Shown here piece by piece: positions 25,756 through 54,450 of a stretch of DNA of 56,236 bases (within the stretch, counting starts at the first letter, position 1; each line of letters begins with the position of its first letter). A program made the translations under genes and the position numbers. Source of the DNA: Thiobacillus denitrificans (GTDB taxonomy: Bacteria; Pseudomonadota; Gammaproteobacteria; Burkholderiales; Thiobacillaceae); contig DYIY01000019.1 of assembly GCA_020723405.1 (NCBI GenBank), positions 1 to 56,236 on the forward strand, in the 5' to 3' direction. The notes beneath the pieces were generated by a model. It was not told the DNA's origin and searched no databases. It was given only the letters and a program-made list of their open reading frames with translations.

Positions 25756-25800
25756 GGGATGGGGGATGGGGGATGGGGGATGGGGGATGGGGGATGGGGG
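25754..25800. repeat. Heptanucleotide tandem repeat (ATGGGGG)6 at the DOMON-like gene start
   Basis: Six perfect copies of ATGGGGG run from 25759 to 25800, preceded by a partial copy that merges with the start codon on the minus strand. On the coding strand the leader reads CCCCCAT repeated. Seven is not a multiple of three, so slippage would move promoter and leader relative to the start. The G-rich strand offers six G5 tracts, enough for G-quadruplex formation. Confidence 0.9.
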
Positions 25801-25841
25801 ATGAAGCCATGGCCGGTTTGCTATCGCAAGGCATAAGACCT

Positions 25842-27173: not shown

Positions 27174-27290
27174 AAATCCCCCCTATCCCCCCTGTTGCAA
27201 AGGGGGGGGCCCTTGGATGGCGGGCTCCTGGTGGACGCCCCCCTTTGCAAAAGGGGGGCCGGGGGGGATTTCGCCTCGGCCGAAATCCCC
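27174..27290. repeat. Compound palindromic element between nifV and cysE/nifP
   Basis: The left arm (27174-27208) begins AAATCCCCCC and contains TTGCAAAGGGGGG; the right arm (27238-27271) is its near-perfect inverse, starting CCCCCCTTTGCAAAA and ending GGGGGGATTT. Each arm can also fold on itself. A second perfect 10-bp stem follows: GGGGATTTCG (27264-27273) with CGAAATCCCC (27281-27290). The element fills nearly the whole gap. It resembles non-autonomous dispersed palindromic repeats; no transposase gene is present. Confidence 0.85.
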
Positions 27291-44448: not shown

Positions 44449-44510
44449 GGCGGTCTTTTCGCGGTGTTATGATCCGGCCGCTAGTATCAACCCGAAGGGG
44501 AGTCGGTGGC

Positions 44511-45089
44511 ATGGTAAGGATGGAAACCCCGGTCTGCGATTTCGGCTGGAAGGCGGTGGACTTCACCCTGCCCGGCGTGGACGGCAAGACCTATTCCCTG
44601 AAAGACGTGGCGGGTCCCAACGGCCTGCTGGTCATGTTCATCTGCAATCACTGCCCCTACGTGAAGGCGGTCATCGAGCGCATCGTCAGGGACGTGCGCG
44701 AATTGCAGGCCCTGGGTGTCGGCGCCGTGGCCATCATGGCCAACGACCCCACGGAATACCCGGAAGACAGCTTCGACAACATGCAAGCACTGGCCAGGCA
44801 CCTGGATTTCCCCATGCCCTATCTGCTGGACGAAAGCCAGGCCGTGGCCCAGGCCTACGGCGCCGTATGCACCCCGGACTTCTTCGGCTTCAACCGGGAC
44901 CTGGAACTGCAATACCGGGGCCGCCTGGACGAGTCGCGCAAGGAAACCGCCCCCGAAAGCGTGCGCCGGGACCTGTTCGAAGCCATGAAACAGGTGGCCG
45001 AGACCCAGCGGGGCCCCGCCGAGCAGATTCCCAGCATGGGCTGCTCGATCAAGTGGAAGGAGTCGGTAGTCGGTAGCGGTAGTCTGTAG
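44511..45089 (+). CDS. Thioredoxin-like (AhpC/TSA-type) family protein
   Basis: 192 residues. AGGGGAG lies 8 nt before the ATG (MVRMETPV). Family pattern: FGWKAVDFTLPGVDGKTYSLKDVAGPNGLLVMFICNHCPYVKAVIERIV, with CNHC as redox centre near residue 47, then GVGAVAIMANDPTEYPEDSFDNMQALARHLDFPMPYLLDESQAVAQAYGAVCTPDFFGFNRDLELQYRGRLDES and PSMGCSIKWK. Such proteins act as thiol peroxidases or reductases of unsettled substrate. After KWK the final residues (ESVVGSGSL) are encoded inside an intergenic heptad repeat, so the natural C-terminus appears to have been replaced by repeat-derived codons. Confidence 0.88.
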   Translation: MVRMETPVCDFGWKAVDFTLPGVDGKTYSLKDVAGPNGLLVMFICNHCPYVKAVIERIVRDVRELQALGVGAVAIMANDPTEYPEDSFDNMQALARHLDFPMPYLLDESQAVAQAYGAVCTPDFFGFNRDLELQYRGRLDESRKETAPESVRRDLFEAMKQVAETQRGPAEQIPSMGCSIKWKESVVGSGSL

Positions 45090-45175
45090 CCTGTGTTTCC
45101 GCGCCTTCGGCGCGCAAGCAAAGCTACCGTTACCAACTACCGACAACCGACTACCGACTACCGACTACCGACTAG
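45061..45175. repeat. Heptad-armed inverted repeat R1
   Basis: The left arm has AGTCGGT units ending in GCGGTAGTCTGTAGCCTG; the core is a perfect CGCGCC-TTC-GGCGCG hairpin (45100-45114); the right arm is a run of TACCGAC units (with TACCAAC and AACCGAC variants) reaching to within 2 bp of the next ATG. The arms can pair over about 45 nt. It overlaps the end of the thioredoxin-like gene. Confidence 0.92.
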
Positions 45176-45177
45176 CC

Positions 45178-45963
45178 ATGGATCCCCGCCTGGACCAGAT
45201 CATCGCCGCCTGCCGCAAGGTGGGGCGCGAAGAGATCATGCCCCGCTATCTGAAGGTGGCCCACCAGCGCAAGGTGGACGGCAGTCTGCTCACCGAGGCG
45301 GATCTGGTGGCCCAGGAAGCCCTGGTGCGCCTGCTCCAGGACATCGCCCCCCTGCCGGTGCTGGGGGAGGAGATGAGCGACGCCGAGCAGCACGACGTGT
45401 GGAACCTGGGGGAGGCCGGCTTCTGGTGCGTGGACCCCATCGACGGCACCAGCAACTTCGTCAACGGCCTGCCCTTCTTCGCCGTGTCCGTGGCCCTGGT
45501 CCGCAACCGGCGCAGCATCCTGGGGGTGGTCTACGACCCGGCCGCCGATGAGGCCTTCTATGCCGAGGCCGGCCAGGGGGCCTGGATGAACGGCGAGCGC
45601 CTGCCCCTCAAGACGCCGCCCACCGAGTTGCGCCGCTGCATGGCCGGCATCGAACTCAAGCGCATCGACCGCACCCTGGCCGGCCGCCTGGCCTTCGAGC
45701 ATCCCTTCAGTTCCCAGCGCAATCTGGGCGCCAGCACCCTGGACTGGTGTTACGTGGCCGCCGGGCGCCTGCACGTCTACCTGCACGGCGGACAGAAACT
45801 CTGGGACCATGCCGCCGGCAGCCTGATCCTCCATGAGGCAGGGGGAGCGGCCTGCGCCCTGGATGGGCAGGATTTCGCCGCCTGCGACCCCTGGAACCGG
45901 TCCGTGCTGGCGGCCCTGACCCCGGAACTCCTGCGCCAGTGGCGGGCTTGGGTGGGGGTCTGA
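45178..45963 (+). CDS. Inositol monophosphatase family protein
   Basis: 261 residues. Metal-binding motifs of the FIG superfamily are present: VLGEEMSD (Glu), the signature WCVDPIDGTSNFVNGLPFFAVSVAL, and the C-terminal LWDHAAGSLILHEAGG. It hydrolyses small phosphate monoesters such as inositol-1-phosphate, 3'-phosphoadenosine phosphate or histidinol phosphate; the substrate cannot be fixed from motifs. The ATG directly follows repeat R1, and no Shine-Dalgarno is visible, so initiation may depend on the repeat structure or on coupling. Confidence 0.92.
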   Translation: MDPRLDQIIAACRKVGREEIMPRYLKVAHQRKVDGSLLTEADLVAQEALVRLLQDIAPLPVLGEEMSDAEQHDVWNLGEAGFWCVDPIDGTSNFVNGLPFFAVSVALVRNRRSILGVVYDPAADEAFYAEAGQGAWMNGERLPLKTPPTELRRCMAGIELKRIDRTLAGRLAFEHPFSSQRNLGASTLDWCYVAAGRLHVYLHGGQKLWDHAAGSLILHEAGGAACALDGQDFAACDPWNRSVLAALTPELLRQWRAWVGV

Positions 45964-46314
45964 AGGCCGGGGCGCTCCGTCCTGGCTGTTGAAATCGGGG
46001 CGTTTTCAAGAAAATTCCCCTGAAAGGCCAAAATCCACAAGACTAAGGGGGTCATGGGGTTCAAGACGCCCTTTGTGCGCCGCACAAATCACACTTTCCA
46101 TAAGCGTCAGAGGGTTGAATATAAAAATATTTTAATTTTTACGGGCAACCTGTCCCAACCCGCGTAAATCCAGGAAACACCAGGGTTTGAGGGCGGTCAC
46201 GGGGGATTTTCCCCCTGCTCGTCACCTTGCTCTTGAATTGCCGGCTACGACATAATCAAAGCTTTCCGCCCAACTGGGCCAAGATTTCGGTTTTTTCTTC
46301 AAGGAAACAAAGAC
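45964..46314. other. Intergenic region upstream of tkt, with a 17-bp palindrome
   Basis: About 350 bp without a gene. It contains the perfect palindrome TTTGTGCG-C-CGCACAAA (46072-46088), an unusually AT-rich tract with AAAATATTTTAATTTTTA (about 46124-46141) that could serve as an UP element, and a GGGGGA-TTT-TCCCCC hairpin (46201-46215). Together these look like the control region of the tkt-gap-pgk-pyk-fba cluster. No confident -35/-10 pair was identified. Confidence 0.55.
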
Positions 46315-48297
46315 ATGGCAACCCGTTCCGACCTCGCTAATGCCATCCGCGCCCTTGCGATGGATGCCGTCGAGAAAGCCAAATCCGGTCACCCCGGTGC
46401 CCCCATGGGCATGGCGGAAATCTCCGAAGTGGTGTGGAACCACCACCTGCGCCACAACCCGGCCAACCCCAAGTGGCCCGACCGGGACCGCTTCGTGCTG
46501 TCCAACGGCCACGGCTCCATGTTGATCTACTCCCTGCTGCACCTGACCGGCTATGACGTCACCATCGACGACATCAAGCAGTTCCGCCAGTTGCACTCCC
46601 GCACCCCGGGCCACCCGGAGTACGGCTACACCGCCGGCGTGGAGACCACCACCGGCCCCCTGGGCCAGGGCATCACCAACGCCGTGGGCATGGCCCTGGC
46701 CGAGAAGCTGCTGGCCGCCGAGTTCAACAAGCCCGGCCACGAGATCGTCAACCACCACACCTACGTGTTCCTGGGCGACGGCTGCATGATGGAAGGCATC
46801 TCCCACGAAGCCTGCGCTCTGGCCGGCACCTGGAAGCTGAACAAGCTGGTCGCCATCTGGGACGACAACGGCATCTCCATCGACGGCCACACCGACGGCT
46901 GGTTCACCGAGGATGTCTGCGGTCGCTTCGAAGCCTACGGCTGGAACGTGGTGCGCAATGTGGACGGCCATGACTTCGCCGCCCTGGAAGCCGCCGTGCA
47001 GAAGGCCAAGGCCTCCGGCGACAAGCCCACCCTGATCCAGGCCAAGACCATCATCGGCAAGGGCTCCCCCAACAAGCAGGGCGGCCACGACTGCCACGGC
47101 GCCCCCCTGGGCGACAAGGAAATCGCCGCCGCCCGGGAAACTATCGGCTGGCCCCACGCCCCCTTCGAGATTCCCGCCGACGTGTACGAAGGCTGGAATG
47201 CCAAGGTGAAGGGCGAGGGGCTGGAAAAGCTGTGGAACAACAAGTTCGCCGAATACGCCGCCGCCTTCCCCGCCGAAGCCGCCGAGTTCACCCGGCGTAC
47301 CCAGGGCGACCTGCCCGCCGACTGGTCCGACCGGGTGAAGGCTGCCCTGGCCACCACCCTGGAGAAGGCCGAGACCGTGGCCACCCGCAAGGCCAGCCAG
47401 TTGGCCATCGAGCGCCTGGTTTCCACCCTGCCCGAGCGGGTGGGCGGTTCCGCCGACCTGACCGGCTCCAACCTGACCAACTGGCCCAACTGCCAGCCCA
47501 TCCACCGCCACGACAAGGCCAACTACATCTCCTACGGCGTGCGTGAGTTCGGCATGAGCCACATCATGAACGGCATGGCCCTGCACGGCGGCCTGTTCCC
47601 CTTCGGCGGCACCTTCCTGATGTTCTCCGAATACGCCCGCAACGCCCTGCGCATGTCCGCCCTGATGAAGCAACGCGTGGTCTACGTGTTCACCCACGAC
47701 TCCATCGGCCTGGGCGAGGACGGCCCCACCCACCAGCCCGTGGAACAGACCGCCACCCTGCGCATGATCCCCAACATGTCCGTCTGGCGTCCCTGCGACA
47801 CCACCGAGACCCTGGTGGCCTGGGCTTCCGGCGTGGAGAAGAAGGACGGTCCCACCAGCCTGATCCTGTCCCGCCAGAACCTGCCCTTCATGGCGCGCAG
47901 CGAAGCCCAGATCGCCGACATCGCCAAGGGCGGCTACGTGCTGTCTGACGCCGAGGGCGCCAAGCTGACCTTCATCGCCACCGGTTCCGAGGTGGAACTG
48001 GCCGTGAAGGCCCAGGAAGCCCTGAAGGCCGAAGGCATCGCCGCCCGGGTGGTGTCCATGCCCTGTACCAACACCTTCGACAAGCAGGACGCCGCCTACA
48101 AGGCCGCCGTCCTGGGCACCGGCAAGCGGGTGGCCATCGAGGCCGGCGTCACCGACGCCTGGTGGAAGTACGTGGGCCTGGACGGTGCCGTCATCGGTCT
48201 GGACCGCTTCGGCGAGTCCGCCCCCGCCGGCCTGCTGTTCAAGGAATTCGGTTTCACCGTGGAGAACGTGGTCGCCAAGGCCAAAGCGGTTCTGTAA
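46315..48297 (+). CDS. tkt: Transketolase
   Basis: 660 residues, thiamine diphosphate enzyme moving two-carbon units in the pentose phosphate and Calvin pathways. Seen in order: [39 protein letters not shown], the ThDP/Mg motif [32 protein letters not shown], the pyrimidine-domain glutamate region [59 protein letters not shown], and the C-terminal domain. CAAGGAAAC lies before the ATG. It heads a cluster with gap, pgk, pyk and fba in the order known from betaproteobacteria, where copies are also called cbbT. Confidence 0.97.
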
Positions 48298-48300
48298 TTA

Positions 48301-49420
<1,120 letters not shown>

Positions 49421-49422
<2 letters not shown>

Positions 49423-49524
49423 GTCTGTAGTTGGTAGTTGGTAGCTGGTAGTCGGTAGTCGGTAGCTTTGTTTGCGCGCCTTCGGCGCGGAAATTCAGGC
49501 TACCGACTACCGCTACCGACTACC
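49421..49524. repeat. Heptad-armed inverted repeat R3 (gap-pgk), opposite core orientation
   Basis: Left arm AGTTGGT-AGTTGGT-AGCTGGT-AGTCGGT-AGTCGGT-AGC, core hairpin CGCGCC-TTC-GGCGCG (49475-49489), right arm CTACCGACTACCGCTACCGACTACC. The core flanks read TTTG...GGAAATTCAG, the reverse complement of the R2 flanks (CTGAATTT...CC / GCAAA). The element therefore lies in the opposite orientation to R1 and R2. Confidence 0.92.
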
Positions 49525-49594
49525 TGCTTCACCACTGAGTCGTAAGAAATAGGCTCCCCTATCTCTTACCGCTTAACTCTCCAAGGAGCACCAA

Positions 49595-50779
49595 ATGGCC
49601 AAATTCCTGCGCATGACCGACCTGGACCTGAAGGGCAAGCGCGTCTTCATCCGCGCCGACCTGAACGTGCCCGTCAAGGAAGGCAAGGTCACTTCCGACG
49701 CCCGCATCACCGCTTCCATGCCCACCATCGAGCACGCCCTGAAGGCCGGTGCCAAGGTCATGGTCACTTCCCACCTGGGCCGGCCCACCGAGGGCGAGTG
49801 GACCGAGGAGGTCTCCCTGGCTCCCGTGGCCGCCGTCATGTCCGCCAAGCTGGGCAAGCCGGTGCGCCTGATCAAGGACTGGGTCAACGGCGGTTTCGAC
49901 GTGGCCGAGGGTGAAGTGGTCCTGCTGGAGAACTGCCGGGTCAACAAGGGCGAGAAGAAGAACGTGGAGGAAACCGCGAAGAAGTACGCCGCCCTGTGCG
50001 ACGTCTTCGTCATGGACGCCTTCGGCACCGCCCACCGGGCCGAGGCCTCCACCTACGGCGTGGCCCAGTTCGCCCCCACCGCCTGCGCCGGCATGCTGGT
50101 TTCCGAGGAACTGGAAGCCCTGGCCAAGGCCCTGGCGGCCCCCGCCCGGCCCATGGTGGCCATCGTCGGTGGCTCCAAGGTGTCCACCAAGCTCACCGTG
50201 CTGGAAGCCCTGTCCGAGAAGTGCGATCAACTGGTGGTGGGCGGCGGCATCGCCAATACCTTCCTGGCCGCCACCGGCAAGAACGTGGGCAAGTCCCTGT
50301 GCGAGAACGACCTGATCCCCACCGCCCAGTCCCTCATCGAGAAGATGAGCAAGCGGGGCGCCACCATCCCCATCGCCGTGGACGTGGTGTGCGGCAAGCA
50401 GTTCGACGCCAACGAGCCTGCCGTGGGCAAGGATGCCGGTGCCGTGGCCGACGACGACATGATCTTCGACATCGGACCCAAGTCCGCCCAGGAACTGGTG
50501 GACATCATCATGAAGGCCGGCACCGTGGTGTGGAACGGCCCCGTGGGCGTGTTCGAATTCGACCAGTTTGGCGAAGGCACCAAGGCCATCGCCAAGGCCA
50601 TCGCCGAGACCAAGGCCTTCACCCTGGCCGGCGGCGGCGACACCATCGCCGCCATCCAGAAGTACGACATCTACGACAAGGTGTCCTACATCTCCACCGC
50701 CGGCGGCGCCTTCCTGGAATACCTGGAGGGCAAGGTTCTGCCCGCCGTGGACATCCTGGAAAAGCGGGCGGCCGGCTGA
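49595..50779 (+). CDS. pgk: Phosphoglycerate kinase
   Basis: 394 residues. Substrate-binding N-terminal domain with [31 protein letters not shown] and [10 protein letters not shown]; nucleotide domain with [39 protein letters not shown] and the ATP loop [14 protein letters not shown]. It forms ATP from 1,3-bisphosphoglycerate, or the reverse in CO2 fixation and gluconeogenesis. AAGGAGC precedes the ATG. Gene order gap-pgk is standard. Confidence 0.97.
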
Positions 50780-50781
50780 TG

Positions 50782-50872
50782 CGAGTGAGGAGAGAGGAGT
50801 GAGGAGTGAGGGAAAACCCATCCTGCCTCTTCGCTCCTCACCCTACACCCCTCACTCCTCACTGCGCACTCT
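50782..50872. repeat. Heptad-armed inverted repeat R4 (pgk-pyk)
   Basis: Left arm of GAGTGAG-GAGAGAG-GAGTGAG-GAGTGAG units, right arm of CTCCTCA-CCCTACA-CCCCTCA-CTCCTCA units. The heptad sequence differs from R1-R3, and the central CGCGCC hairpin is absent, but the 7-nt periodicity and inverted layout are the same. The right arm ends within a few bases of the pyk start codon. Confidence 0.88.
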
Positions 50873-50874
50873 CC

Positions 50875-52308
50875 ATGCTCCGTAGAACCAAAATCGTTGC
50901 CACCCTGGGCCCGGCCTGTTCCGACCCCAAGGTGCTGGACCGGATGATCGAGGGCGGGGTGGACGTGGTCCGCCTCAACTTCTCCCACGGCACTCCGGAA
51001 GAACATCAACAGCGTTGCGAACTGGTCCGTTCCCTGGCCAAGACCCGGGGCCGGGCCGTGGGCGTGCTGGTGGACCTGCAGGGCCCCAAGATCCGCATCG
51101 GCAAGTTCAAGGACGGCAAGATCACCCTGAGCCCGGGGGACAAGTTCGTCCTGGACGCCACCTGTGAACTGGGCGACCAGGGCCGGGTGGGCCTGGACTA
51201 CAAGGAACTGGTCCAGGACGTGGCCCGGGGCGCCACCCTGCTGCTGGACGACGGCCGCATCGAGATGTGGGTGGAAGAGGTGGTCGGCACCGAGGTCCAC
51301 TGCAAGGTGGTCCAGGGCGGCACCCTGTCCAACAACAAGGGCATCAACCGCAAGGGCGGCGGCCTGTCCGCCGCTGCCCTGACCGAGAAGGACATCGAGG
51401 ACATCAAGACCGCCGCCTTGATCAAGGCGGACTATCTGGCCGTGTCCTTTCCCCGCTCCGCCGCCGACATCCAGCAGGCCCGGGAAATCCTCCGGGCCGC
51501 CGGCGGCAAGGCCTGGATCGTCTCCAAGATCGAACGGGCCGAGGCCATCGAGGCCCTGGAGGAAATCATCGCCGCCTCCGACGCCATCATGGTGGCCCGG
51601 GGCGACCTGGGTGTGGAAGTGGGCGACGCCGCCGTGCCGGCCCTGCAAAAGCGCATGATCCGGGCGGCCCGGGACCAGAACAAGGTGGTCATCACCGCCA
51701 CCCAGATGATGGAGTCCATGATCTCCAGCCCCATCCCCACCCGGGCGGAAGTGTCCGACGTGGCCAACGCCGTGCTGGACGGTACCGACGCGGTGATGCT
51801 GTCGGCGGAGACCGCCGCCGGCAAGTATCCGGTGGAGGCCATCCAGGCCATGCACCGGGTCTGTCTGGAGGCGGAGAAGGAATACGACTCCATGGCCGGG
51901 GCCCGGGGCATCGACCAGGGGTTCCTGCGGGTGGACGAGGCCATCGCCATGTCCGCCGCCTTCACCGCCCTGCACCTCAACATCAAGGCCATCGCCGCCA
52001 TGACCCAGTCCGGGTCCACGGCCCTGTGGATGTCGCGGATCAGCACCCACGTGCCCATCTACGCCTTGACGCCCGAGGTGGATACCCGTAGAAAAGTCAC
52101 CCTGTTCCGGGGCGTCTACCCGGTCAACTTCAAGCCCGCCACCAACGACCGGGACGTGTTGCTGGCCGAGGCGGAAGACGAACTGCGGCGCCGGGGTGCG
52201 GTGCGCAACGGCGACCTGATCCTGCTCACCATCGGCGAACCCATCGGCAAGCCGGGGGGCACCAACACCATGAAGATCGTTCGCGTGGGCGAACGGAAGA
52301 AGGCTTGA
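50875..52308 (+). CDS. pyk: Pyruvate kinase
   Basis: 477 residues. Start MLRRTKIVATLGPAC matches the family N-terminus; longer in-frame starts would translate the repeat. Motifs: VVRLNFSHGTPEEHQ, VDLQGPKIRIG, the signature with catalytic lysine AWIVSKIERAEAIEALEEI, MVARGDLGVEVG, TATQMMESMI and DGTDAVMLSAETAAGKYPVEAI. It makes pyruvate and ATP from phosphoenolpyruvate. No Shine-Dalgarno is visible, because repeat R4 abuts the start. Presence in this cluster points to glycolytic use rather than a dedicated CO2-fixation operon. Confidence 0.96.
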   Translation: MLRRTKIVATLGPACSDPKVLDRMIEGGVDVVRLNFSHGTPEEHQQRCELVRSLAKTRGRAVGVLVDLQGPKIRIGKFKDGKITLSPGDKFVLDATCELGDQGRVGLDYKELVQDVARGATLLLDDGRIEMWVEEVVGTEVHCKVVQGGTLSNNKGINRKGGGLSAAALTEKDIEDIKTAALIKADYLAVSFPRSAADIQQAREILRAAGGKAWIVSKIERAEAIEALEEIIAASDAIMVARGDLGVEVGDAAVPALQKRMIRAARDQNKVVITATQMMESMISSPIPTRAEVSDVANAVLDGTDAVMLSAETAAGKYPVEAIQAMHRVCLEAEKEYDSMAGARGIDQGFLRVDEAIAMSAAFTALHLNIKAIAAMTQSGSTALWMSRISTHVPIYALTPEVDTRRKVTLFRGVYPVNFKPATNDRDVLLAEAEDELRRRGAVRNGDLILLTIGEPIGKPGGTNTMKIVRVGERKKA

Positions 52309-52391
52309 TGGAGTCCAGAGTGGAGAGTCGAGAGCCGAGAGAAAAACCTCTCTGCCCCCTTCTCTCGACTCTCGACTCTCCACTCTCGACT
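52309..52391. repeat. Heptad-armed inverted repeat R5 (pyk-fba)
   Basis: Left arm GAGTCCA-GAGTGGA-GAGTCGA-GAGCCGA-GAG, right arm TCTCTCG-ACTCTCG-ACTCTCC-ACTCTCG-ACT. A third heptad family with the same architecture; the loop contains CCTCTCTGCCCCC. It begins 1 nt after the pyk stop and precedes the fba ribosome binding site. Confidence 0.9.
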
Positions 52392-52411
52392 GATTGATCA
52401 AGGAGAAAACG

Positions 52412-53479
52412 ATGGCTCTGATTTCACTGCGTCAACTGCTGGACCACGCTGCCGAGCACGGCTATGGCCTGCCCGCCTTCAACGTCAACAACATGGAACA
52501 GGTCCAGGCCATCATGCAGGCCGCCGCCGCCACCGACAGCCCGGTGATCCTGCAAGGCTCCGCCGGTGCCCGTTCCTACGCCGGTGAGCCCTTCCTGCGC
52601 CACCTGATTCTGGCCGCCATCGAGCAATATCCCCAGATTCCCGTGTGCATGCACCAGGACCACGGCGCCTCCCCCAGCATCTGCTTCCGCTCCATCCAGT
52701 CCGGCTTCTCTTCCGTGATGATGGACGGCTCCCTGGGCACCGACGGCAAGACCCCTTCCACCTATGAATACAACGTCAACACCACCCGCCACGTGGTGGA
52801 ACTGGCCCATGCCTGCGGCGTGTCCGTGGAAGGCGAACTGGGCTGCCTGGGCTCCCTGGAGACCGGCAAGGCCGGCGAGGAAGACGGCCACGGCGCCGAA
52901 GGCGTGCTGGACCACTCCTCCCTGCTGACCGACCCCAACGAGGCCGCCGACTTCGTCAGCAAGACCCACGTGGACGCCCTGGCCATCGCCATCGGCACTT
53001 CCCACGGCGCCTACAAGTTCACCCAGAAGCCCACCGGCAAGGTGCTGCGCATCGACCGGGTCAAGGAAATCCACGCCCGCATCCCCAGCGTCCACCTGGT
53101 CATGCACGGTTCCTCCTCGGTGCCGGAAGACTGGCTGGCCATCATCAACAGCTACGGCGGCGACATGGGCCAGACCTACGGCGTGCCGGTCAGCGAGATC
53201 GTCGAAGGCATCAAGAACGGCGTGCGCAAGGTGAACATCGACACCGACCTGCGCATGGCCTCCACCGGTGCCATCCGCAAGCACCTGGCCGAAAACAAGT
53301 CCAACTTCGACCCGCGCAAGTTCCTCAAGGAAGCCACCAAGGCCATGAGCGGCATCTGCTCCGCCCGCTACGAAGCCTTCGGCGCCGCCGGCAAGGCCAG
53401 CAAGATCGGCAAGATCTACAACCTGGAAGACATGCAGAAGCGCTACGACAAGGGCGAGCTGGATCCCAAGGTGAACTGA
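52412..53479 (+). CDS. fba: Fructose-1,6-bisphosphate aldolase, class II
   Basis: 355 residues. Zinc ligands and phosphate-binding motifs: [31 protein letters not shown] (first His/Asp), [34 protein letters not shown] (His) and [15 protein letters not shown] (His). The later [36 protein letters not shown] matches the CbbA-type subgroup of class II aldolases common in betaproteobacteria. CAAGGAG lies before the ATG. It works in glycolysis, gluconeogenesis and the Calvin cycle (also sedoheptulose bisphosphate). Confidence 0.96.
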
Positions 53480-53480
53480 G

Positions 53481-53545
53481 CGAGTCGGTAGTCGGTAGTC
53501 GGTAGTATGCAGCCGGTAGCGGGGGCCCCAGCCCTCCTACCGGCT
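53481..53545. repeat. Heptad-armed inverted repeat R6 (fba-purC), degenerate
   Basis: AGTCGGT-AGTCGGT-AGTCGGT-AGT on the left and only a short right arm: AGCCGGTAG (about 53511-53519) pairs with CTACCGGCT (53537-53545). The core CGCGCC hairpin is missing. It looks like a decayed or partial member of the R1-R3 family. Confidence 0.8.
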
Positions 53546-53565
53546 TAACCATTTGTGGAAGCCCT

Positions 53566-54450
53566 ATGAACGCGGATGCCCTATACGAATCCTCCATCAA
53601 GAGCCTGCCCCTGATCCATCGCGGCAAGGTGCGCGACATCTACGCCATCGACGACCGGCGCATGCTCATCGTCACCACCGACCGGCTGTCGGCCTTCGAC
53701 GTGGTCCTGCCCACCCCCATCCCGGACAAGGGCAAGGTGCTCACCGCCGTGGCCGATTTCTGGTTCGCGCGGTTGGCCCCCATCCTGCCCAACCAGTTGA
53801 CCGGCGACGCGCCGGAATCGGTGGTGGCCCCGGAGGAACGCCCCCAGGTGGCCGGCCGGGCCGTGGTGGTGAAGCGCCTCAAGGCCCTGCCGGTGGAAGC
53901 CATCGTGCGCGGCTACCTGGTGGGCAGCGGTTGGGCCGACTACCAGAAGACCGGCCAGGTGTGCGGCATTCCCCTGCCCCCCGGCCTGCGCCAGGCCGAC
54001 AAGCTGCCCGAGCCCCTGTTCACGCCGTCCACCAAGGCCGCCGTGGGGGCCCATGACGAAAACATCAGCTACGCCCAATGTGCCGACCTGCTGGGCGCCG
54101 ACCTGGCCGCCCGGGTGCGGGATGCGGCCATCGCCCTGTACAAGGCGGCGGCGGACTACGCCCTGACCCGGGGCATCATCATCGCCGACACCAAGTTCGA
54201 GTTCGGCCTGGATGAAGCGGGCACCCTGACCCTCATCGATGAGGTGCTCACCCCCGACTCATCCCGCTTCTGGCCAGCCGACCAGTACGCCGTCGGCAGC
54301 AACCCCCCCAGCTACGACAAACAATACGTGCGCGATTGGCTCACTGCCTCCGGCTGGAACAAGCAGGCTCCGGGGCCGGCGTTGCCCGCCGAGGTGGCGG
54401 CCCGCACCGCCGAGAAATACCGGGAGGCCCTGCGCCGCCTGACCGGTTGA
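53566..54450 (+). CDS. purC: Phosphoribosylaminoimidazole-succinocarboxamide synthase
   Basis: 294 residues, the longer form of SAICAR synthase. Motifs: [114 protein letters not shown]. It joins aspartate to CAIR in purine synthesis. TGTGGAAG precedes the ATG. The gene is separated from fba by repeat R6, and no other pur gene is in the window. Confidence 0.97.

What the first reader, a model, noticed from the sequence alone, without database searches (positions are those of the whole stretch)
45061..53545. Six neighbouring junctions carry inverted repeats whose arms are heptanucleotide tandem arrays
Between the genes from the thioredoxin-like gene to purC, six gaps are filled by long inverted repeats. 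In all of them the arms are built of 7-nt units, but the unit differs: AGTCGGT-type (R1, R2, R3, R6), GAGTGAG-type (R4) and GAGTCGA-type (R5). The left array and the right array are complementary, so each gap could fold into a long hairpin in DNA or mRNA. Tandem heptads are known as STRRs in heterocystous cyanobacteria; heptads organised as opposed, complementary arms with different sequence families but the same period are not something I can match to a named element class. The constant period with varying sequence suggests a copying mechanism (hairpin templating or slippage) rather than simple dispersal.
Basis: partly seen in the sequence, partly recalled or inferred. Interest (0 to 1): 0.82.

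Follow-up and report, generated by a model that had tools for sequence, protein, structure and literature searches.

The report
Seven-letter-repeat hairpins between operon genes
Between genes of some of its operons this bacterium carries hairpin-forming DNA whose two arms are stacks of seven-letter repeats; related species carry similar hairpins at the same places but written in different seven-letter words, which points to a little-studied kind of spreading repeat element.

Summary
R1-R5 are inverted repeats with opposed 7-nt arrays; R6 has a left array only. In 740 kb drawn at random from this genome, period 7 is the commonest array period (11; next is period 9 with 9), but only 9 of 339 gaps carry it, so six of seven gaps here is exceptional. 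All three unit families recur elsewhere.

Period-7 gaps lie between co-directional genes (58 of 61; none convergent), starting a median 3.5 nt after the upstream stop. At orthologous junctions, congeners and other proteobacteria carry heptad arms in other units, other palindromes, or no insert. Units are shared within a genome more than at the same junction across genomes (0.30 vs 0.06, p=0.0005). The 5' arm is G-rich in 87 of 88 heptad hairpins.

I read these as lineage-specific dispersed elements fixed at intercistronic sites, with arms changing by 7-14 nt slippage. Hairpin templating failed in the one family tested; an mRNA role finds no strand bias; no Y1 transposase and no target-site duplication were found, so the copying agent is unknown. 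Opposed heptad pairs are known from Xanthomonas (GGGAATC); unit dialects and orthologous swapping were not in the papers my searches listed.

The parts
45061..45174 (.). R1: left array AGTCGGT (45061-45089), core CGCGCC-TTC-GGCGCG (45100-45114), right array (45131-45174). The left array supplies the last codons and the stop of the upstream ORF.
   Evidence: 18 congeners' ORFs end 2-6 residues after the shared KW, this one 10 residues after it
48299..48395 (.). R2 (tkt-gap): left array AGCTGGT-type 48299-48332, core CGCGCC-TAC-GGCGCG 48341-48355, right array 48367-48395
49422..49524 (.). R3 (gap-pgk): left array 49422-49467, core CGCGCC-TTC-GGCGCG 49475-49489, right array 49499-49524
   Evidence: the orthologous site in sister genome G010 holds GAGTCGA-type arms
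50783..50871 (.). R4 (pgk-pyk): GAGTGAG arms 50783-50811 and 50834-50871, no core palindrome
52311..52391 (.). R5 (pyk-fba): GAGTCGA arms 52311-52343 and 52360-52391, no core palindrome; among the 20 congeneric junctions read, only here and in G010
53483..53545 (.). R6 (fba-purC): left AGTCGGT array 53483-53506 only, plus a separate 9-bp hairpin 53511-53519 / 53537-53545; not an opposed heptad pair
25756..25803 (.). unpaired perfect GGGATGG array (6.9 copies) in a divergent gap; same period, no inverted partner found

Best explanation
The features are members of dispersed, lineage-specific intercistronic repeat elements that share an architecture rather than a sequence. Each has a G-rich array of 7-nt units on the 5' side, a short centre (in some families a GC palindrome with a variable 3-nt loop), and the complementary C-rich array on the 3' side.

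In each lineage one or a few unit families multiply and settle at gene junctions inside operons, usually directly after the upstream stop codon. Related genomes use other families or leave the site empty. Once in place, arms gain or lose whole units by slippage.

Shown here: architecture, period, polarity, genome-specific units, empty versus filled orthologous sites, unit-step indels. Inferred: that the spread is by copying in trans. Inferred too: that the operon position reflects tolerance (no coding, promoter or terminator loss) rather than a required function. The copying agent is unknown.
For: Genome dialect: 46 heptad junctions in 13 congeneric genomes, mean unit similarity 0.303 within a genome (102 pairs), 0.063 at the same junction between genomes (115), 0.029 otherwise (818), permutation p 0.0005. 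Empty sites: pyk-fba is 22-49 nt in 18 congeners and 103-109 nt with heptad arms in this genome and G010 only; iscS-iscU, iscA-hscB, gcvT-gcvH and gcvH-gcvPA also range from 3-19 nt to about 100 nt or more. Lineage-specific amplification: GTAG arms plus CGCGCC-NNN-GGCGCG core 35 times here, one site in one other of 399 order-level genomes; the backwards control pattern hits once in each of 3. Core palindrome in 40 of 93 heptad hairpins against 2.2 expected from shuffled loops. Operon position: period-7/14 gaps are 58 of 261 co-directional, 3 of 70 divergent, 0 of 27 convergent (p 2.7e-6); in the random tiles 9 of 244, 0 of 63, 0 of 32 (p 0.066). Neighbours of such gaps include dnaK, iscS, iscU, gcvT, nifD, nifK, leuB and ilvC. 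Unit-step indels.
Against: No target-site duplication (mean longest match of 14-nt flanks 3.24, random pairing 3.23; 58 elements). No Y1_Tnp match in this genome, the class of RAYT and IS200/IS605 transposases. Most elements of the GAGTCGA, GTGAGG and GGGAAAC families have no core and unrelated loops, so whole-element transposition is not shown for them. 17 of the 61 period-7 gaps have no inverted repeat over the threshold. The unit-similarity test does not tell transposition from a genome-specific mutational process that makes the same units anew. No match to R1 in plasmids or phages, though BLAST masks simple repeats.
Confidence: 0.58

Rival explanations
1. Local origin: a chance heptad expands by polymerase slippage and the second arm is copied from the first by template switching at the hairpin.
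For: Indels of 7 and 14 nt between same-unit orthologues. Some families share no core or loop. Heptad tandem repeats are reported as over-represented in bacteria and slippage proposed (Mrazek 2007, as cited in PMC4679880 and PMC4692102).
Against: Units follow the genome, not the site. Arms of one GTAG hairpin are not significantly more alike than randomly paired arms (mean score 12.2 against 11.1, p 0.17, 25 hairpins); other families were not tested. A shared core palindrome runs through the GTAG copies.
Confidence: 0.17
2. Selected mRNA hairpins: intercistronic stems act as RNase III or RNase E processing sites or as mRNA 3'-end stabilisers, and sequence turns over freely because only the stem matters.
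For: Strong folds. Median z is -3.1 in 74 heptad junctions against -1.1 in 247 others. Non-homologous hairpins recur at the same junction: gap-pgk z below -3 in 15 of 20 genomes of the genus, this one included. Nearly always inside operons.
Against: No G-U bias on the sense strand: G.T 56 against A.C 73 in 51 hairpins here, 73 against 80 in 68 elsewhere; the antisense strand folds slightly better (p 0.036 and 0.005). Covariation is weak: 35 double changes that still pair against 25.6 coincident changes expected, and 149 broken pairs of 968 (27 alignments). Many congeners keep several of these junctions at 0-30 nt with no hairpin. No terminator-like site at R1-R6.
Confidence: 0.17
3. Members of the GTAG REP superfamily mobilised by RAYT transposases, with an expanded head.
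For: The commonest R1-R3 and R6 units contain GTAG, and the GTAG family has a GC palindrome with a 3-nt loop, as many GTAG REPs do (PMC3733652, section 5).
Against: 0 Y1_Tnp in this genome, G010, G020 and G021, all with heptad junctions. The 7 genomes with at least 4 heptad junctions average 1.0 Y1_Tnp against 3.4 in the other 14 (Mann-Whitney p 0.011; Spearman over all 21 is weaker, -0.42, p 0.06). Other families lack GTAG. GTAG is iterated on both sides instead of sitting at one end.
Confidence: 0.05

Closest known systems
GGGAATC heptameric repeats of Xanthomonas (Rehm et al. 2015, PMC4692102)
   Same: G-rich 7-nt units, intergenic, close to the 5' neighbouring ORF, few in divergent gaps (7-8%), 70-75 pairs per genome in convergent orientation able to form stem-loops; length varies between species at the same genes
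   Different: One unit family described there; here several families per genome, other units in congeners at the same junction, a core palindrome in some families, units without G-triplets, and 0 of 59 convergent gaps with period 7 (the two samples overlap in part) against 16% of repeats in convergent gaps there
STRR / LSSR heptanucleotide repeats (cyanobacteria; TAACTGA of Beggiatoaceae, PMC4679880; GGACCGG of Geobacter metallireducens, PMC2700814; passages seen)
   Same: Tandem 7-nt units, dispersed in many copies, TAACTGA mostly intergenic
   Different: The TAACTGA sets are direct arrays, with one inverted pair reported in the Maribeggiatoa genome; the GGACCGG elements are four-unit arrays found within genes as well
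GTAG-tagged REPs / REPINs (PMC3733652, abstract and section 5; REPINs from a search listing)
   Same: Palindromic, intergenic, downstream of coding regions, GC stem with short variable loop
   Different: No Y1 transposase match in this genome, GTAG iterated at both sides, arms of heptads of about 14-45 nt, several families without GTAG
MITEs (definition recalled)
   Same: Short inverted repeats without genes, dispersed
   Different: No target-site duplication, no conserved interior in several families, no identified transposase

Membership tests
Heptameric simple-sequence repeats (STRR/LSSR) | tandem 7-nt units in many intergenic copies | tested here: met
Heptameric simple-sequence repeats (STRR/LSSR) | unit-number change by slippage | tested here: met
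   7- and 14-nt gaps between same-unit orthologues of different species; strain-level variation not tested
Xanthomonas GGGAATC convergent pairs | opposed (convergent) G-rich heptad arrays | tested here: met
   87 of 88 heptad hairpins have G>C in the 5' arm
Xanthomonas GGGAATC convergent pairs | unit GGGAATC | tested here: not met
   0 matches to two GGGAATC units in the window with up to 1 mismatch
GTAG REP / REPIN | single unpaired GTAG tag at one end of a 20-40 bp palindrome | tested here: not met
   GTAG iterated in both arms; absent from the R4 and R5 units
GTAG REP / REPIN | RAYT (Y1_Tnp) gene in the genome | tested here: not met
   0 matches to PF01797 at E<=0.001 in this genome, 99.3% complete
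MITE | target-site duplication | tested here: not met
   flanks no more alike than random pairing, 58 elements; ends were set by the arrays, so a duplication hidden inside them would be missed
MITE | related autonomous transposon | not tested
   only PF01797 and PF00078 were searched
Intrinsic terminator | GC stem followed by U-tract | tested here: not met
   no terminator-like site at R1-R6; 5 elsewhere in 44500-54200 against 7.5 expected; the scan allows loops of 3-8 nt only
RNase III processing site | cleavage of the intercistronic duplex | not testable with these tools
   no RNA data; sense-strand G-U bias absent

The most novel reading that the evidence does not exclude
Each lineage may carry an activity that writes its own G-rich 7-nt word onto DNA ends, as telomerase does. 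Addition at the two 3' ends of a break, followed by joining, would give exactly the invariant layout seen: G-rich array, junction, C-rich array, like a head-to-head telomere fusion, with a unit shared across one genome and replaced in the next species. It need not be a reverse transcriptase of the RVT_1 family: G010, G020 and G007 have heptad junctions and no RVT_1 match.
Probability: 0.05. Interest if true: 0.93.

Novelty: new variant of a known kind. Interest (0 to 1): 0.67.

Why it matters
The mechanism behind the excess of 7-nt tandem repeats in bacteria is open. Here the period, the G-first polarity and the operon position stay fixed while the sequence is swapped from species to species at the same junction. 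That gives dozens of matched filled, empty and re-filled sites in one genus, so dispersal, slippage and selection can be told apart by comparing strains. If a dedicated agent spreads these elements, it is unidentified; if none does, a process able to give one genome its own heptad word would be new.

Tried and rejected
Intrinsic terminators: rejected, no terminator-like site at R1-R6 and no period-7 gap between convergent genes (0 of 27; 0 of 32). Known RNA family: 0 Rfam matches at gathering thresholds in the window. RAYT/IS200: rejected for this genome. Reverse transcriptase as required agent: no correlation with RVT_1 counts (rho -0.02, 21 genomes). Hairpin-templated arm copying in the GTAG family: not supported. 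Target-site duplication: none seen. Plasmid or phage carriage of R1: no match.

Corrected on re-reading: the 400-kb sample had been taken partly knowingly (two C42 stretches held hits listed, and the C5 stretches stop short of a known hit), so its period counts and the '8 of 176' gap rate are biased. I replaced them by 40 random tiles. The odds of the explanations do not rest on those counts and are unchanged.

Less informative: indel lengths over 279 loosely aligned pairs were alignment noise. The stricter set (37 pairs) still contains cross-unit pairs; 22 of its 86 gaps are 7 or 14 nt, against 100 of 1125 in the 155 other pairs (sum). In the eight same-unit pairs that I picked by eye from that list, 12 of 14 gaps are 7 or 14 nt. 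The eye-picking is a weakness.

Caveat: at p<=0.02 about 7 of the 330 tested junctions would be significant by chance. Three of the 15 significant gap-pgk junctions of the genus (L078, L082, L083) come mainly from a conserved hairpin before pgk and not from an inserted element, so I count 12 of 20. In one search, rplL-rpoB signals come from a conserved native pyrimidine run without an inverted repeat; that junction was dropped, as were the last 62 nt of each gap-pgk gap. The three L247 gaps (around rplL, rpoB, secE and tuf) are of that kind too but are counted in the 61. The heptad and transposase counts per genome were typed in; genomes absent were set to 0.
Full report
What is there. Folded alone they are far more stable than shuffles (z -5.8 to -9.6). 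R6 has a left array but its right side is a single 9-bp arm, and its fold is near chance. The imp-tkt gap between R1 and R2 has no significant period-7 array. In R1 the left array runs into the upstream ORF and supplies its last codons and stop: the ORF ends 10 residues after a shared KW, those of 18 congeners 2-6 residues after it.

Genome-wide. In 40 tiles drawn at random (739,652 bases), arrays over the threshold number 11 with period 7, 9 with period 9, 6 with period 14 and 0-3 for each other period; shuffled sequence has none. Of 339 gaps of at least 40 nt in those tiles, 40 are significantly periodic; period 7 leads with 9, ahead of 6 with period 6. So period 7 is the commonest period but present in only 2.7% of gaps, and six of seven gaps in this operon is exceptional (binomial 2e-9). 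An earlier sample of mine was partly chosen on known hits and is not used for rates. Exact patterns over the whole genome give 81 GTAG-type sites (backwards control 0), 7 GAGTCGA-type (control 0) and, with one mismatch allowed, 107 GTGAGG-type (control 40) (sites overlap within an array).

Where they sit. I called genes with a small codon-usage script and tested gaps in 0.82 Mb of this genome, part of it chosen because it holds arrays. Of 358 gaps of at least 40 nt, 61 are significantly 7- or 14-periodic, 44 of them with an inverted repeat: 58 of 261 co-directional, 3 of 70 divergent, 0 of 27 convergent (Fisher 2.7e-6). The rate is inflated by the choice of regions; orientation was not used in choosing. 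In the random tiles all 9 such gaps are co-directional (of 244; 0 of 95 others; p 0.066). A separate hairpin-based count gives 36 co-directional and 1 divergent of 37. The 58 elements start a median 3.5 nt after the upstream stop and end a median 10 nt before the next start; 17 overlap the upstream coding end as called. Of 40 flanking genes scanned against NCBIfam, 38 matched, among them dnaK, gcvT, gcvPA, iscS, iscU, hscB, fdx, nifD, nifK, leuB, ilvC, murG, dnaG, yajC, flgE, glyA and peptide deformylase.

Orthologous junctions. With the eight proteins of this operon I extracted 422 junctions from the window and 99 loci (20 congeneric regions and 79 named records; L088 dropped because its contig has the same length, and its genes the same spacing, as L071). 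Ninety-two are shorter than 40 nt. Of the 330 tested, 90 are significantly periodic at p<=0.02 (about 7 expected by chance): 63 with best period 7, 11 with 14, 8 with 9, 3 with 10, 5 others. The units differ between species: GTGAAAC, GGGAAAC, AGTGGCA, GGTTCAA, GTGAGCG, GTAGCGG, TCAGGGG, AGTTGCA, CGGTGAA, CAGTCAG, GATGGGC, AGTAGGG and others. In sister genome G010 the sequence after the R3 hairpin is nearly identical while the hairpin itself is GAGTCGA-type. Four junctions in the isc and gcv operons show the same swapping, with period-7 or -14 arrays in 4-11 of 18-21 genomes and short empty gaps in others; iscU-iscA has none in 26, and rplL-rpoB shows only a conserved native run.

Dialects. If units arose locally, sites would not agree within a genome. 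They do: similarity of unit content is 0.303 between different junctions of one genome, 0.063 between genomes at the same junction, 0.029 otherwise (46 junctions, 13 genomes, permutation p 0.0005). The GTAG element with its core occurs 35 times here and once in one other of 399 genomes drawn from the order (backwards control: once in each of 3 genomes); that draw held 6 of the 23 genomes of the genus and lacked G015 and G020, which carry the element at junctions I read.

Anatomy. The 5' arm is G-rich in 87 of 88 heptad hairpins (47% G, 11% C); the exception is a G=C case that does not look like a heptad array. Non-heptad inverted repeats at the same kinds of junctions are less uniform (36 G-rich, 5 equal, 10 C-rich). 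The GTAG family carries CGCGCC-NNN-GGCGCG with 12 different loop triplets in 25 copies (the search itself required the two arms). G010 and L112 show GCGCGC-NNN-GCGCGC; TCAGG elements and two GTGAAA elements have other GC palindromes; most GAGTCGA and GTGAGG elements (one exception each) and all GGGAAAC elements have none. Overall 40 of 93 heptad hairpins have a perfect GC palindrome of at least 5 bp with a 3-5 nt loop, against 2.2 expected from shuffled loops.

Mechanism tests. Slippage: same-unit orthologues differ by exactly 7 or 14 nt, for example L071 and L073. Hairpin templating: arms of one GTAG hairpin are not significantly more alike than randomly paired arms (p 0.17). RNA selection: mismatches show no G-U excess on the transcribed strand (56 G.T against 73 A.C here; 73 against 80 elsewhere), and the antisense strand folds slightly better; double changes that keep pairing exceed coincidence only modestly (35 against 25.6) and 149 of 968 pairs are broken. 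Known mobilisers: no Y1_Tnp in this genome, and heptad-rich congeners tend to have fewer, not more (p 0.011 by group, 0.06 by rank correlation); RVT_1 counts are uncorrelated; no target-site duplication.

Known kinds. Opposed heptad pairs are not without precedent: Rehm et al. 2015 report 70 and 75 convergent GGGAATC pairs in two Xanthomonas genomes, intergenic, close to the 5' neighbouring ORF, rare between divergent genes (PMC4692102, sections 10 and 16 read). Geobacter metallireducens has 49 four-unit GGACCGG elements (PMC2700814, passages) and a Beggiatoaceae genome has TAACTGA direct arrays with one inverted pair (PMC4679880, passages). REPs share position and palindromy but fail two defining tests (PMC3733652, abstract and section 5). 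A betaproteobacterial repeat of Bordetella (PMC3110155, passages) is a tandem repeat of another kind as far as I saw. A search for six sequence strings of this genome's units gave 0 papers, and the rows listed by six keyword searches (lists are capped) held nothing on multi-family heptad hairpins or on their swapping at orthologous junctions. Papers outside that library were not searched; Mrazek 2007 is known to me only as cited.

Verdict. The feature is real, part of a broad phenomenon, and a new variant of a known kind. The most likely account is dispersal of architecture-defined elements with later slippage. What copies them, why the period is seven, and why the G-rich arm comes first remain open. 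One plain reason for the polarity, untested here, is that a G-rich arm just before a start codon would mimic ribosome-binding sites.

Noticed in passing
window 27174-27271; also L052, L058, L059, L060, L062: Inverted repeats of the form AAATCCCCCC..CCCCCCTTTnnnAAAGGGGGG, several within about 6 kb in L059; they resemble intrastrand-triplex repeats (PMC4666352, seen only as a search listing).
   Followed up: no
window 25756-25803: Perfect GGGATGG array of 6.9 units in a divergent gap with no inverted partner found.
   Followed up: partly
G000 contigs C2 (start), C4 (end), C12 (start), C36 (end), C38 (both ends): Six contig ends of the assembly lie in or within 20 nt of GTGAGG-type heptad arrays, so the longest arrays are probably unassembled.
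   Followed up: no
L068, L069, L075, L082 and L289-L291: Four congeners (G006, G011, G016, G019) hold long GTAGGTTGGGCAAAGCG-type or GTAGGTCGGGTTAG-type palindromes at the gap-pgk or iscA-hscB junctions where others have heptad hairpins; these genomes have 4-6 Y1_Tnp matches each.
   Followed up: partly
L089, L097, L101, L132, L157: Hairpins whose arms have period 9 or 10 (CGCGGAGTT, CACGAAAGA, ACGCAAATGA types) at the same operon junctions in other proteobacteria.
   Followed up: no
window 49542-49569 and the same place in congeners: A second hairpin just before pgk, recurring within the genus (GTAAG...CTTAC), possibly an old degenerate heptad element.
   Followed up: no
G000:C5:245399-245818 (inside L056): The genome's only RVT_1 match, in a 317-codon open frame.
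   Followed up: no
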